Assembly (NCBI GenBank): GCA_002427055.1
Contig: DIPA01000063.1
Location: forward strand, 12,225-17,579
Source: Firmicutes bacterium UBA5500
Lineage (GTDB): Bacteria; Bacillota; UBA994; UBA5500
Length of the DNA: 5,355 bases
Reading direction: 5' to 3'
In this document: piece by piece, positions 1 through 3,597 of the stretch
Layout of the letters: the number at the start of each line of letters is the position of its first letter
How positions within the stretch are numbered: the stretch's first letter is position 1
Notes under the pieces: generated by a model
The model's database searches: none
Told to the model about the DNA's origin: nothing
What the model saw: the letters and a program-made list of their open reading frames with translations, nothing else
Program-made: the position numbers and the translations under genes

Positions 1-1778
1 AGTTCATAAACCTGGGGGTCACTAAACTCCTGCTTCATGTCGATGGCAATACCATGGTTACGCTTGACCTGTTCTAACGCATCTTTGATTATCGTCAAAG
101 TTGTCAGGCCTAGGAAGTCCATTTTGAGCAGACCCAGCTGCTCAATGGTACCCATAGGGAATTGGGTCGTGACCGCGTCACCATTCTTGGCTAAGGGGAC
201 AACATTAGCTAGCGGCTCGGGAGAAATAACCACAGCAGCAGCATGCACCGATGCGTGACGCGGCAGCCCTTCTAAGGCACGACTGATATCAATCAGTTTA
301 CGAGTTATCTCTTCCTCTTCATAGGCTGCTTTCAACTCAGGTACCTGCTCCAGGGCATCATTGATAGTAACTCCTAATTTACTGGGAATTAGCTTAGCTA
401 CGCGATCGCCTTCTTGAAAACTGAGTCCTAGCGCCCGTGCCACGTCACGGATCGCTGCCTTGGCCCGCATGGTGCCGAAAGTAATTATCTGGCTTACATT
501 TTCCGTACCATATTTACGGGCCACATAATCGATAACTTCACCGCGTCGCTCGTTACAAAAGTCGGTATCAAAGTCAGGCAAACTAATACGTTCTGAGTTT
601 AAGAAACGTTCGAAGATCAGATGATAAGGTAACGGATCAAGACCTGTAATACCCAGAATATAAGCGACCACACTAGCTGCGCCTGACCCACGGCCGATAC
701 CAACGGGGATATCATGCTCACGGGCGTAATTGATAAAATCAGCCACAATTAAAAAGTAGCTAGCGAACCCCATGCTTTCAATAACCGATAGTTCATAGTC
801 AATGCGCTCATGCACCTCTTGGCTGGGGTTGGGATAGCAGTTGGGCAGTCTGGTTGCTACTTGATGCCGCAAATAGGTCTCCGGAGTGAAGCCCTCGGGC
901 ACTTCATAAACCGGCAAGCGTGACACGCCAAACTGGAACTCGAGTTGGCAACGGTCGGCAATAGCCACTGTGTTAGCCATCGCGGCTTCGATAATGGCGT
1001 CCGGCAAATAGTGAAACATCGCGGCGAGCTCGTCCCGAGACTTTAGATGAAACTCAGGCACGAAACGCATGCGGTTCGTATCGTGCACTGTCTTCCCCGT
1101 CTGAATGCAAAGCAACACATCGTGTGCTTCGTAATCGGCAGCTTGTACATAGTGAGCATCGTTAGTGATAATGAGGGGTATGCTGAGCTCTTCATGCAGA
1201 CGCACCAGCGCTTCGTTCACCTGTCTCTGCTCAGGTAACCCATGCTCCTGTAATTCCAGGTAAAAATTACCTACCCCAAAAATCGTCTGTAAGCGCAAAG
1301 CAGTTTCTTTGGCTTCCTCGTATAACCCGCTCATCAAGAGCGAAGGAATTTGCCCGCCGAGACAGGCACTAGAGACAATCAATCCTTCGTGATATGTTTC
1401 TAACAGCTCCCAGTCAACCCGCGGTCGATAGTAAAAGCCCTCAGTGAAACTTTTGCTGACCAGTTTAATCAGGTTCTTGTACCCTGTCTCATTGGCAGCC
1501 AATAATACTAAGTGAAACTGGCTATCATCTAATTTAGGCTTCCGATCGAAACGAGTACGTGTAGCCATATATACTTCACAGCCGATAAGAGGCTTAATAC
1601 CGGCCTTCTTTGCTGCCTGATAAAACTCCATCACACCGTACATGGTGCCATGATCAGTAATAGCAAGAGCCGGTTGTTGCAACTCTTTTGCACGTTGCAC
1701 CAATTCGCTGATTCTGCCAGCGCCATCAAGTAAGCTATATTCTGTATGCACATGCAAATGCACAAAATCTGTAGACAT
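1..1778 (-). CDS. dnaE: DNA polymerase III subunit alpha, DnaE type (N-terminal part, cut by left edge)
   Basis: This is the catalytic subunit of replicative DNA polymerase III, which extends primed DNA at the replication fork. About 592 codons are open without frameshift; DnaE is usually about 1,100-1,200 residues, so roughly half is missing, including the fingers, tau/clamp-binding and OB-fold parts. The N-terminal PHP domain shows HLHVH (7-11), TDHG (41-44), GCE (66-68) and NDAHY (206-210). The polymerase core follows, with a glycine-rich motif at 359-369 (GIGRGSGAAS), PDFDTDF (401-407) and KMDFLGL (552-558). D402, D404 and D554 match the three catalytic aspartates known in E. coli DnaE (401, 403, 555). 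The ATG start is set by a strong ribosome binding site and by PHP homology beginning at residue 5. It is transcribed divergently from the riboswitch unit. The glycine-rich motif departs from the common GPGRGSxAGS form. Identity is very secure. Confidence 0.97.
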   Translation of the reverse strand, partial: MSTDFVHLHVHTEYSLLDGAGRISELVQRAKELQQPALAITDHGTMYGVMEFYQAAKKAGIKPLIGCEVYMATRTRFDRKPKLDDSQFHLVLLAANETGYKNLIKLVSKSFTEGFYYRPRVDWELLETYHEGLIVSSACLGGQIPSLLMSGLYEEAKETALRLQTIFGVGNFYLELQEHGLPEQRQVNEALVRLHEELSIPLIITNDAHYVQAADYEAHDVLLCIQTGKTVHDTNRMRFVPEFHLKSRDELAAMFHYLPDAIIEAAMANTVAIADRCQLEFQFGVSRLPVYEVPEGFTPETYLRHQVATRLPNCYPNPSQEVHERIDYELSVIESMGFASYFLIVADFINYAREHDIPVGIGRGSGAASVVAYILGITGLDPLPYHLIFERFLNSERISLPDFDTDFCNERRGEVIDYVARKYGTENVSQIITFGTMRAKAAIRDVARALGLSFQEGDRVAKLIPSKLGVTINDALEQVPELKAAYEEEEITRKLIDISRALEGLPRHASVHAAAVVISPEPLANVVPLAKNGDAVTTQFPMGTIEQLGLLKMDFLGLTTLTIIKDALEQVKRNHGIAIDMKQEFSDPQVYE

Positions 1779-1836: not shown

Positions 1837-1915
1837 AATGGTTTTGGCAAGTACTCGTTGCTTGCATGGTAAATAAAGGCTAGAAGAATCAGATGGCTGC
1901 TACCAGAAAGTGCTT

Positions 1916-1944
1916 TTGACAGCGCAAAAGCTATTATGTAGACT
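1916..1944 (+). promoter_or_regulatory. Probable sigma-A promoter of the riboswitch transcript
   Basis: A perfect -35 box TTGACA (1916-1921) is followed after 17 nt by the -10-like TAGACT (1939-1944, 4 of 6 consensus bases). The predicted transcription start is near 1951, immediately before the 5' strand of the aptamer's closing helix. That fit supports the promoter despite the imperfect -10. TATTAT at 1932-1937 looks more like a -10 but is only 10 nt from the -35 box. Confidence 0.65.
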
Positions 1945-1949
1945 AGGAA

Positions 1950-2076
1950 CACAAGCCGAATCGAGCCAATTGGCTCGTACGGGGAACAAGCAGTGGGGTG
2001 AATCGGCTTTTGCCGTAGGGTCTGCCTTTCTCTCCCGAACCCGTCAACTAACCTCGGAGGCTTGGCGCAGAAAGGA
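1950..2076 (+). promoter_or_regulatory. c-di-AMP riboswitch aptamer (ydaO-yuaA class)
   Basis: This RNA element binds cyclic di-AMP; in the known class, ligand usually turns expression off through a terminator. The recognisable blocks, in family order, are GCCGAATC (1955-1962), ACGGGGAAC (1979-1987), GGGGTGAATC (1995-2004), GTAGGGTC (2015-2022) and TCCCGAACCCGTCAACTAAC (2033-2052), then CTCGGAGGC (2053-2061). The expected helices can be drawn. CAAGCC (1952-1957) pairs with GGCTTG (2059-2064) as P1. CGAGCC/GGCTCG around an AATT loop (1962-1977) forms a perfect hairpin. CGGC/GCCG closes a TTTT loop (2004-2015). CCTTTCT (2025-2031) pairs with AGAAAGG (2069-2075). These helices and conserved blocks resemble the Thermoanaerobacter aptamer of known structure. 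It appears intact. No gene on the same strand follows it, which is atypical; the family commonly precedes cell-wall hydrolase or potassium and osmolyte transporter genes. Confidence 0.92.
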
Positions 2077-2137
2077 TGATCGCTAGTACTTAATTGCAGT
2101 GATCATCAGGCAACATGTCTTTCTCAGGTTGGCCAAG
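2061..2137 (+). promoter_or_regulatory. Riboswitch linker: alternative hairpin that would break the aptamer
   Basis: A nested set of pairings is visible: CTTGGC (2061-2066) with GCCAAG (2132-2137), AGAAAG (2069-2074) with CTTTCT (2119-2124), and a 10-bp stem 2075-2084 with 2098-2107 (one G-U pair). The outer two use the 3' strands of two aptamer helices, so this hairpin and the folded aptamer exclude each other. It may be the ligand-free structure. How it would reach the terminator, which it does not overlap, is unclear. Confidence 0.5.
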
Positions 2138-2147
2138 TGATCTGCAA

Positions 2148-2183
2148 AAACCGAGCCGTGTTATTGGCTCGGTTTCTTTTTTT
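2148..2183 (+). terminator. Intrinsic terminator of the riboswitch transcript (bidirectional)
   Basis: AAACCGAGCC (2148-2157) pairs with GGCTCGGTTT (2166-2175) around an 8-nt loop, followed by a tract of T with one C (2173-2183). On the minus strand the same hairpin is followed by five T (complement of 2146-2150). It should therefore also end the minus-strand transcript of the small membrane gene, whose stop codon (2182-2184) abuts it. The stem core repeats the aptamer hairpin at 1962-1977. Confidence 0.9.
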
Positions 2184-2472: not shown

Positions 2473-2496
2473 GCAAAAGGCGCCTAAGCTAGGCGC
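2473..2496 (-). terminator. Weak terminator-like hairpin over the HD-GYP stop codon
   Basis: On the minus strand, GCGCCTA (2490-2496) and TAGGCGC (2480-2486) form a perfect 7-bp stem with a 3-nt loop, followed by CTTTTGCTTC. The TAG stop of the HD-GYP gene (2484-2486) lies in the stem. The U-run is short, so it is more likely a partial terminator that lowers transcription of the downstream gene than a full stop. Confidence 0.45.
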
Positions 2497-3563
2497 GTTT
2501 CGTCGGCAATGACTTCTATGATTGAGATATCGTTGTTTATACTCAAATCAAGTTCATAATAATCGTCTAACTCCTCACCCTCCGTATCATAAAGGGCGCG
2601 TACAATAGGGCGAGTAGTAATTGGCTTGTTAACATCAACTACGACGCCAATGATGCCTGTGCTGAGGCGAACCAAGGTGCCTGTCGGATAAAAAGCAACT
2701 TGCTGCAGGAAATGGTGCACGATTTCAGAATCGAAAAATTGGCCACTTTGCTCTAGCAACAGCTCAGCAGCCTTATGAGGCAAAAAACGCGGCCGATAGG
2801 CTCGATCAGAAACCAGGGCATCATAGACATCGGCAACTGCCACAATGCGACCATAAAGATGGATTTCTGAACCAGTCAAACCACGTGGGTAACCTGAGCC
2901 ATCCATGCGCTCATGATGTTGAAAGGCAATATGGGCGCTGAGCAAGCCGATTTCTCCTTGCCGCCGCAAGATTTCGAAGCCCGCACTAGTATGCTCCTGG
3001 ATCTGCTCGTATTCTACGGGAGACAACGGGCCTGGTTTCTTTAACAGATCGCCTGGCACAAGTGTTTTACCTAAATCGTGCATCAGTGCGCCAATTGCCA
3101 GCTCCCGTAGCTGATCTCTATTTAGAGCGCAGGACATGCCAATTAAAATAGCAAACGAACAAACGTTGACCGAATGAGCAAAAGTATAATCGTCTTGTAG
3201 ACGAATATCGAACATATTTATCAATAAATCCGGCTTCGTGCTCAAGTCATCAATTAGCATGTCTACTATGTCAGTGATGGCTGGCGCATCCAAAACGCTG
3301 CCGGCGATTAGACTGGTGCAGGCTGTGCGCACCATTCTTAGGGCTCGTAACCGCGTCCGCTCACTTAGAAAATCAACAGCATCGATATCCGGAAAACGCG
3401 GATCAACCACGTAGACTGAATACACACCTAACTGAACTAGCCGCGCAATATAAGAATCTCGTAATCTCTGTCCTTTTGCCAAAAGAACCTTGCCGTCGGA
3501 CGAGATTACAGACTGTGCTAGCTCCATACCTGGCTTTAAGTGCTTGGTGCTAATGCGACGCAA
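2484..3563 (-). CDS. HD-GYP domain protein, probable cyclic-di-GMP phosphodiesterase
   Basis: HD-GYP proteins of this type hydrolyse c-di-GMP at a two- or three-metal centre. Numbered from the start chosen here (359 residues), residues 5-55 form a short N-terminal module with PGM, a DGKVLLAKGQ stretch and a VYVVD strand, common in Firmicutes HD-GYP proteins. The catalytic domain covers about 115-290, with HSVNV (H130), HDLGK (H162-D163), H191, HHERMDGSGYPRGL (216-229) and ADVYDALVSDRAYRP (244-258). All expected metal ligands and the GYP signature are present. A small beta-rich tail follows (about 292-359). No membrane segment or receiver domain is visible, so it should be cytosolic. I chose the TTG at 3563 over the upstream TTG at 3596: GGAGG at 3572-3576 is 8 nt before it and would be inside the longer frame, and the conserved module begins directly after. 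The gene is 154 nt downstream of alaX. The exact substrate is inferred. Confidence 0.9.
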   Translation of the reverse strand: MRRISTKHLKPGMELAQSVISSDGKVLLAKGQRLRDSYIARLVQLGVYSVYVVDPRFPDIDAVDFLSERTRLRALRMVRTACTSLIAGSVLDAPAITDIVDMLIDDLSTKPDLLINMFDIRLQDDYTFAHSVNVCSFAILIGMSCALNRDQLRELAIGALMHDLGKTLVPGDLLKKPGPLSPVEYEQIQEHTSAGFEILRRQGEIGLLSAHIAFQHHERMDGSGYPRGLTGSEIHLYGRIVAVADVYDALVSDRAYRPRFLPHKAAELLLEQSGQFFDSEIVHHFLQQVAFYPTGTLVRLSTGIIGVVVDVNKPITTRPIVRALYDTEGEELDDYYELDLSINNDISIIEVIADETRLA

Positions 3564-3571
3564 AAGGTCTC

Positions 3572-3576
3572 CCTCC
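3572..3576 (-). promoter_or_regulatory. Ribosome binding site deciding the HD-GYP start
   Basis: The minus strand has a purine run, GGGGGGAGGGAG, with GGAGG 8 nt before TTG at 3563. No comparable site precedes the alternative TTG at 3596, which would add 11 residues (MLGDRRGEGDL) encoded by the Shine-Dalgarno region itself. Confidence 0.75.
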
Positions 3577-3597
3577 CCCCGTCTGTCACCTAACAAA

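What the first reader, a model, noticed from the sequence alone, without database searches (positions are those of the whole stretch)
1916..2183. Orphan c-di-AMP riboswitch: promoter, aptamer and terminator but no sense gene
The unit is complete and compact. A TTGACA promoter places the start at the aptamer's first helix, the ydaO-class core is well conserved, and an intrinsic terminator follows about 75 nt after the aptamer. Beyond it, every recognisable gene to the right edge (3.2 kb) is on the opposite strand. Known members of the class sit in the 5' leader of the gene they control. This one may be a stand-alone c-di-AMP-binding RNA (sensor, sponge or trans-acting sRNA), an antisense regulator, or a relic of a lost gene. 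The intact helices argue against long decay.
Basis: partly seen in the sequence, partly recalled or inferred. Interest (0 to 1): 0.72.

Follow-up and report, generated by a model that had tools for sequence, protein, structure and literature searches.

The report
RNA switch that outlived its gene
In one bacterial family, an RNA switch predicted to sense the messenger c-di-AMP is still present with its promoter and terminator in all four genomes examined although the cell-wall enzyme gene found behind it in sister genomes is gone, so it likely now acts as a free-standing sensor RNA.

Summary
Window 1944-2079 (+) is an RF00379 c-di-AMP aptamer (77.8 bits; cut-off 38), the only one in this genome. 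It has a promoter, a terminator, and no sense gene behind it. All four held genomes of the family (two genera) have the same unit in the same place, divergent from dnaE and convergent with a small membrane-protein gene. In three genomes of a sister family the same aptamer directly precedes a sense cell-wall hydrolase gene (Hydrolase_2), with a Shine-Dalgarno-like sequence in the aptamer's tail. That paralogue was not found in the four genomes here. So the element is the leader of a lost gene. It is probably not dead: dnaE four-fold sites are saturated among the four (28-39% identity), yet the aptamer keeps 73-93% identity, with compensatory changes in P2. The promoter, terminator and a block before the terminator are also conserved, while the spacer is not. 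Best reading: a riboswitch that outlived its gene and likely persists as a stand-alone c-di-AMP-binding RNA. Its output is unknown; no gating or target signal was found. Trans-acting riboswitch RNAs are known for other classes. Neither expression nor ligand binding could be tested.

The parts
1903..1920 (+). Conserved element CCAGAAAGTGCTTTTGAC overlapping the -35; partly palindromic (AAAGTGCTTT)
   Evidence: Recognisable in all 4 family genomes in the alignment, with single-base variants; not seen by eye in the sister-family loci
1916..1944 (+). Sigma-70-type promoter TTGACA-17-TAGACT
   Evidence: promoter region 71-80% identical among the four; TTGAC and TATACT hexamers also before the three sister aptamers
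1944..2079 (+). c-di-AMP (ydaO class) aptamer, RF00379
   Evidence: 77.8 bits, full length; sole copy in genome
1953..2063 (+). Aptamer P1: AAGCC 1953-1957 with GGCTT 2059-2063; P2: CGAGCC 1962-1967 with GGCTCG 1972-1977
   Evidence: Pair counts on 5 sequences: P1 and P2 100% paired; 4 of 6 P2 pairs changed on both sides
2025..2031 (+). Pseudoknot strand CCTTTCT in the aptamer
   Evidence: 7 pairs possible with 2069-2075; that the ydaO aptamer holds a pseudoknot is stated in PMC5393176 (passages)
2069..2075 (+). AGAAAGG: pseudoknot partner; the corresponding purine-rich strand precedes the hydrolase start codon in sister genomes (Shine-Dalgarno-like)
   Evidence: Sequence
2076..2103 (+). Non-conserved spacer (variable length in relatives)
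   Evidence: 0 of 236 alignment columns invariant
2099..2128 (+). Possible relic of the hydrolase C-terminus (frame VIIRQHVFLR against VILRIGNHVFMR)
   Evidence: p 0.005 against the C-terminal 24 aa, 0.05 against the whole protein; not significant in the other 3 genomes
2104..2146 (+). Conserved 3' block (GGCAAC .. CTTTCTC .. CCAAGTGATC); borders drawn after seeing the alignment
   Evidence: 53-73% identity counting gaps, 19 of 45 columns invariant; found at this locus in 4 of 4 family genomes, other matches E 0.04 or worse
2148..2183 (+). Intrinsic terminator and T tract, probably shared with the convergent gene
   Evidence: of 10 stem pairs in the alignment 9 are invariant and 1 has a C-G to U-A double change in G003
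3..1778 (-). dnaE (DNA polymerase III alpha, partial), divergent neighbour
   Evidence: PF07733 and PF02811
2182..2424 (-). Small membrane protein by eye ('p80'), convergent neighbour, no Pfam family
   Evidence: homologues in family and sister family
2484..3596 (-). HD-domain protein (PF13487, HD_5), HD-GYP motif by eye

Best explanation
This is the riboswitch leader of a cell-wall hydrolase gene that has been lost, and the promoter, predicted c-di-AMP aptamer and terminator have stayed conserved in all four family genomes, so it likely now makes a stand-alone c-di-AMP-binding RNA of about 240-430 nt. Shown here: the aptamer match, the sense hydrolase gene behind the same aptamer in three sister-family genomes, the absence of that paralogue from the four genomes, and conservation far above saturated neutral sites with compensatory changes. 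Inferred: in the sister genomes c-di-AMP would lock the purine-rich tail strand (the Shine-Dalgarno sequence) in the aptamer's pseudoknot and so repress hydrolase translation. In this family no shared reading frame is left, so the folded state of the RNA itself would be the output, read in trans by an unknown mRNA or protein, most plausibly through the conserved block before the terminator.
For: Aptamer. Same unit beside dnaE in 4 of 4 family genomes. Sense Hydrolase_2 gene directly after the aptamer in 3 of 3 sister genomes that have the aptamer (G004, G006, G014). The riboswitch-linked paralogue is missing: each family genome has one Hydrolase_2 gene, and all four fall in the group of the other paralogue, 100/100 support (14 of 15 sequences; one fragment dropped). 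Neutral saturation: dnaE four-fold identity 0.28-0.39; gaps counted, the aptamer has 0.73-0.93, the promoter 0.71-0.80, the 3' block 0.53-0.73, the terminator 0.63-0.85, while the non-coding dnaE-side flank has 0.27-0.53 and the spacer 0.04-0.42. Compensation: 8 of 30 pairs changed on both sides, 96% of cells paired, 0 of 500 shuffles as high (the four plus G006); within the family, G003's P2 differs from the others at 3 pairs on both sides. The loss looks old: spacers of G001 and G003 (different genera) align to each other (67, maximum of 300 shuffles 37) but show no clear hydrolase coding signal. c-di-AMP synthase domains are present in 15 of 15 class genomes. Contrast: in G010 the gene and the aptamer are both gone between p80 and dnaE.
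Against: Only four genomes of the family are held. No expression or binding data. G003 has a C-to-A change at a position invariant in all 32 non-family aptamers that my pattern matched (of 91 tried), so its binding may be weaker; its other odd change (A to G) also occurs in a crystallised ydaO aptamer. Folding shows no ligand-dependent exposure of the conserved CU tract, and no target signal was found in start regions of the remaining hydrolase, dnaE or p80. Terminator conservation may be due to the convergent gene. Region borders were drawn after seeing the alignment. The hydrolase relic is significant in one of four spacers only.
Confidence: 0.6

Rival explanations
1. Passive relic: the gene was lost and the aptamer is decaying slowly without function.
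For: G003 carries an unusual change at a near-invariant position; the spacer is eroding; in one genome a hydrolase C-terminal remnant seems visible.
Against: Four-fold sites are saturated, so an unconstrained aptamer, promoter and 3' block should be hard to recognise. P2 changes are compensated. In G010 gene and aptamer are both gone. It would need independent recent losses in each lineage, against the shared G001/G003 spacer.
Confidence: 0.2
2. Antisense or interference element: transcription from this promoter toward the convergent p80/HD-domain genes is regulated by c-di-AMP, like Listeria AspocR.
For: p80 is convergent in 4 of 4 family genomes. A riboswitch-controlled antisense RNA is known for vitamin B12 (PMC8079631, passages).
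Against: The terminator stem forms in the predicted fold of all 4 RNAs. The aptamer-to-terminator distance varies 71-273 nt, and the best alternative pairing of the terminator arm that I found by eye is 5 bp. In sister genomes the platform looks translational, not a terminator.
Confidence: 0.1
3. The riboswitch still controls a very short, unannotated reading frame in the spacer.
For: A possible start codon directly follows AGAAAGG in 3 of 4 genomes.
Against: These frames run 5 (G000), 6 (G001) and 33 (G002) codons; G003 has only a TTG with 2 codons; none is shared. An ATG right after GG also exists in sister genomes, where it is not the hydrolase start by my reading. Of the two window ORFs of 40 aa or more on this strand here, 1910-2086 lies mostly in the aptamer and 2115-2249 reads through the terminator.
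Confidence: 0.05

Closest known systems
c-di-AMP (ydaO/yuaA/kimA) riboswitch, RF00379
   Same: Full-length aptamer match at 77.8 bits, with the pseudoknot strands present
   Different: No gene on its strand to control; in the sample of other loci, 88 of 90 usable ones have a sense ORF first by a mechanical rule (corrected)
C. glutamicum nlpC translational c-di-AMP riboswitch (PMC9960051; abstract and passages seen)
   Same: Cell-wall enzyme target and no terminator between aptamer and gene: the arrangement seen in the sister family
   Different: In this family the gene is gone
Rli55 (B12 riboswitch sRNA that sequesters EutV), Listeria (PMC8079631, passages)
   Same: A riboswitch whose output is a non-coding RNA
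   Different: Different ligand class; there ligand-driven termination decides whether a protein-binding site is made. No such site or gated terminator is evident here
AspocR (B12 riboswitch antisense RNA), Listeria (PMC8079631, passages)
   Same: Riboswitch facing a gene on the opposite strand
   Different: Here a predicted terminator stops the RNA before the opposite coding region
SreA (SAM riboswitch acting in trans on prfA), Listeria (PMC8079631, passages)
   Same: A terminated riboswitch RNA (229 nt) of similar size that acts in trans
   Different: SreA also keeps its cis-regulated operon

Membership tests
RF00379 c-di-AMP riboswitch aptamer | Covariance model score above the gathering cut-off over the full model | tested here: met
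   77.8 bits against 38, model 1-134
RF00379 c-di-AMP riboswitch aptamer | Conserved helices supported across relatives | tested here: met
   96% of cells paired, 8 of 30 pairs with two-sided changes; the pseudoknot helix is only 83% paired, partly because 2 of 5 rows are misaligned there
RF00379 c-di-AMP riboswitch aptamer | Binds c-di-AMP | not testable with these tools
   Needs in-line probing or ITC
c-di-AMP riboswitch as a cis-regulator | Sense gene downstream under its control | tested here: not met
   None recognised in 4 of 4 family genomes (one mechanical 112-aa frame in G002 lies antisense to p80); met in 3 of 3 sister genomes with the aptamer
c-di-AMP riboswitch as a cis-regulator | Ligand-responsive terminator or Shine-Dalgarno masking | tested here: inconclusive
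   Purine-rich strand and pseudoknot present, but no gene; the terminator looks constitutive in silico
Trans-acting riboswitch sRNA (SreA, Rli55 type) | Defined transcript with its own promoter and terminator | tested here: inconclusive
   Both predicted and conserved; no transcript data
Trans-acting riboswitch sRNA (SreA, Rli55 type) | Demonstrated RNA or protein target | tested here: inconclusive
   No duplex signal in 9 start regions of three genes; other targets not tested

The most novel reading that the evidence does not exclude
A c-di-AMP-responsive, trans-acting small RNA that evolved when the cell-wall hydrolase gene behind a translational riboswitch was deleted: the ligand-sensing leader became the gene product.
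Probability: 0.35. Interest if true: 0.75.

Novelty: new variant of a known kind. Interest (0 to 1): 0.52.

Why it matters
Riboswitches are normally described by the gene they control. Here the same locus can be compared with the gene (sister family), without the gene but with the aptamer (this family), and without either (G010). That makes the question whether a riboswitch can become an independent sensor RNA directly testable. Working stand-alone c-di-AMP RNAs would also mean that gene-centred surveys miss part of the c-di-AMP network.

Tried and rejected
Gated CU-tract model: the tract before the terminator can pair with AGAAAGG, but ensemble folding shows no consistent masking or release in the four RNAs. 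Rejected as a demonstrated mechanism.

Terminator as the riboswitch's expression platform: rejected because of variable spacing, no terminator seen between aptamer and gene in sister genomes, and a stable terminator fold in all 4.

Trans target in start regions of the remaining hydrolase (4 genomes), dnaE (4) or p80 (1): no excess over shuffles (lowest fraction 0.09 of 9 tests).

Hydrolase relic by nucleotide alignment: marginal (3 of 12 tests under 0.05, uncorrected). By protein frames it is significant in G000 only.

Consensus fold of the 3' block: only the terminator is solid; the other four pairs carry no double change.

Literature: searches for 'orphan riboswitch' (20 of 65 papers listed), for vestigial, relic or standalone riboswitch phrases (no paper), and for c-di-AMP with ydaO, antisense RNA and small RNA (5 papers) listed no paper whose title or abstract start describes a stand-alone c-di-AMP riboswitch RNA; some searches were broader and were also seen as listings. 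In PMC7266159 I read passages only; they mention rare trans-acting riboswitches of other kinds. In PMC10907184 I read passages only; one names ydaO among classes with a ribosome-site-masking layout. The library is incomplete.

Full report
OBSERVATION. The window holds one Rfam hit: RF00379, the c-di-AMP (ydaO) riboswitch aptamer, at 1944-2079 (+), 77.8 bits against a cut-off of 38. It is the only copy in the window's genome. A TTGACA-17-TAGACT promoter ends at the aptamer's first model position, and an intrinsic terminator stem lies at 2148-2175. dnaE diverges to the left. To the right, a small gene (p80), an HD-domain gene, a tRNA-synthetase-like gene (tRNA-synt_2c, tRNA_SAD) and an ABC ATPase end are all on the - strand.

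CONSERVATION OF THE ORPHAN STATE. Among 15 genomes of the class, 7 have RF00379, one copy each: 4 of 4 in the window's family (f1: G000-G003), 3 of 8 in family f2 and 0 of 3 in f3. All seven copies lie divergent from dnaE. In the four f1 genomes the order is dnaE < aptamer > terminator < p80 < HD-domain gene, with no sense gene recognised. A mechanical 112-aa + frame in G002 is antisense to p80 and not conserved.

ORIGIN. In the three f2 genomes with the aptamer, a sense gene starts within about 15 nt of it. Its product carries Hydrolase_2 (PF07486) with LysM and, in two of three, PG_binding_1. A purine-rich Shine-Dalgarno-like strand (GAGAGG or GAAAGG) lies in the aptamer's tail; in f1 the corresponding AGAAAGG can pair with CCTTTCT. 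I see no terminator between aptamer and gene. This fits a translational switch, as reported for C. glutamicum nlpC (PMC9960051, abstract and passages). A p80 homologue follows on the other strand in G006. The f1 genomes each have one Hydrolase_2 gene elsewhere. A tree of 14 of the 15 sequences puts these in the group of the other paralogue at 100/100 support, so the riboswitch-linked one was not found in f1. In f2 the locus also decays in other ways. G011 keeps a hydrolase cut short at its C-terminus, without the aptamer. G010 has p80 next to dnaE with neither. No RF00379 trace at E 1 or better was found at the seven dnaE loci tested from the eight aptamer-less genomes; the eighth, G009, gave no dnaE match.

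SELECTION. Among the four f1 genomes dnaE four-fold sites are 28-39% identical, close to random, and dnaE proteins 76-83%. Counting gaps, the aptamer is 73-93% identical, the promoter 71-80%, the 3' block 53-73%, the terminator 63-85%, the non-coding dnaE-side flank 27-53%, and the spacer 4-42% with no invariant column of 236 (without gap columns the spacer is 26-54%). I drew the region borders after seeing the alignment, which favours the short 3' block. The aptamer helices vary by compensation: 8 of 30 pairs have two-sided changes and 96% of cells are paired, reached by 0 of 500 shuffles (four f1 sequences plus G006; such shuffles do not keep relatedness, but every slid version scores far lower). 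The spacers of G001 and G003, from different genera, align with each other (score 67, maximum of 300 shuffles 37) and show no hydrolase coding signal beyond shuffles. This argues that the gene was lost before the genera split and that the conservation came afterwards. Terminator conservation could be owed to p80, but that of the aptamer, promoter and 3' block cannot easily be explained that way.

RELIC. In G000 the 3' block can be read as VIIRQHVFLR, like the hydrolase end VILRIGNHVFMR (p 0.005 for the C-terminus, 0.05 for the whole protein); the other three are not significant. It is suggestive only. The block is found at this locus alone in the four genomes at significant E-values.

MECHANISM. 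Inferred: c-di-AMP would stabilise the aptamer and pseudoknot. In f2 this would mask the start region of the hydrolase mRNA. In f1 only the RNA is left, about 236-434 nt, so the output would have to be the RNA's own state. Synthase domains for c-di-AMP are present in 15 of 15 class genomes. I found no gating of the conserved CU tract by folding and no target signal in nine start regions of three candidate genes. The output step is therefore open.

AGAINST. Four genomes are few. G003 carries C-to-A at a position invariant in the 32 non-family aptamers that my pattern matched, of 91 tried. Its other odd change also occurs in the crystallised ydaO sequence (PMC5393176, passages). Nothing here shows transcription or binding.

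BASELINE. I classed 95 above-cut-off loci (29, 26, and 40 more fetched down the list; all among the best-scoring, not a random draw) by a mechanical ORF rule. One (L170) had been read at a wrong place and is dropped. Of the 90 usable loci outside f1, 88 have a sense ORF first. In L204 a sense gene begins at +815, behind an 85-aa antisense frame, and L210 has no sense gene. The rule also called G002 of f1 'sense' because of the frame antisense to p80, so it can overcount. Orphans are thus rare in this sample but not unique. L210 and its relative L213 place the aptamer against the 3' end of an amidohydrolase-like gene, an independent case worth its own study.

VERDICT. It is a member of RF00379 by sequence and structure, but I find no gene that it could regulate in cis in this family. 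The most likely reading is a riboswitch that outlived its gene and is kept as a stand-alone c-di-AMP-binding RNA.

Noticed in passing
L212:2248-2382 (-) and L213:2011-2172 (-): A second, unrelated orphan RF00379: in two species of one genus (G106, G027) the aptamer, with a promoter-like site in front (scanned in L213), abuts the 3' end of an amidohydrolase gene (mtaD-like by eye) on the other strand, with a U tract straight after the aptamer. The layout resembles a riboswitch-controlled antisense RNA.
   Followed up: partly
window 1903-1920: A partly palindromic element (AAAGTGCTTT in the window) overlapping the -35 is recognisable in the four family genomes but not seen by eye in the sister loci; possibly an operator or UP element.
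   Followed up: no
L107:594-1325 (-): In G011 the hydrolase beside dnaE lacks its C-terminal part (72 of 100 Hydrolase_2 positions) and no aptamer is found: another stage of loss at the same locus.
   Followed up: partly
L016, L020, L021, L022, L026, L028: In these loci a sense ORF starts 3-12 nt after the aptamer, in contrast to mostly 60-300 nt in the other loci of that call; several of these genes look cell-wall related by eye, which hints at a translational subclass of c-di-AMP riboswitch.
   Followed up: no
L204:885-1700: A stretch of about 800 nt with a transposase-like antisense frame (by eye) separates an RF00379 aptamer from an ABC transporter gene.
   Followed up: no
window 2484-3596: The orphan c-di-AMP aptamer faces a run of genes with an HD-GYP-like protein, a family that acts on cyclic dinucleotides (recalled). 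A tblastn over the 30 short loci found this neighbour in the four f1 loci only.
   Followed up: no
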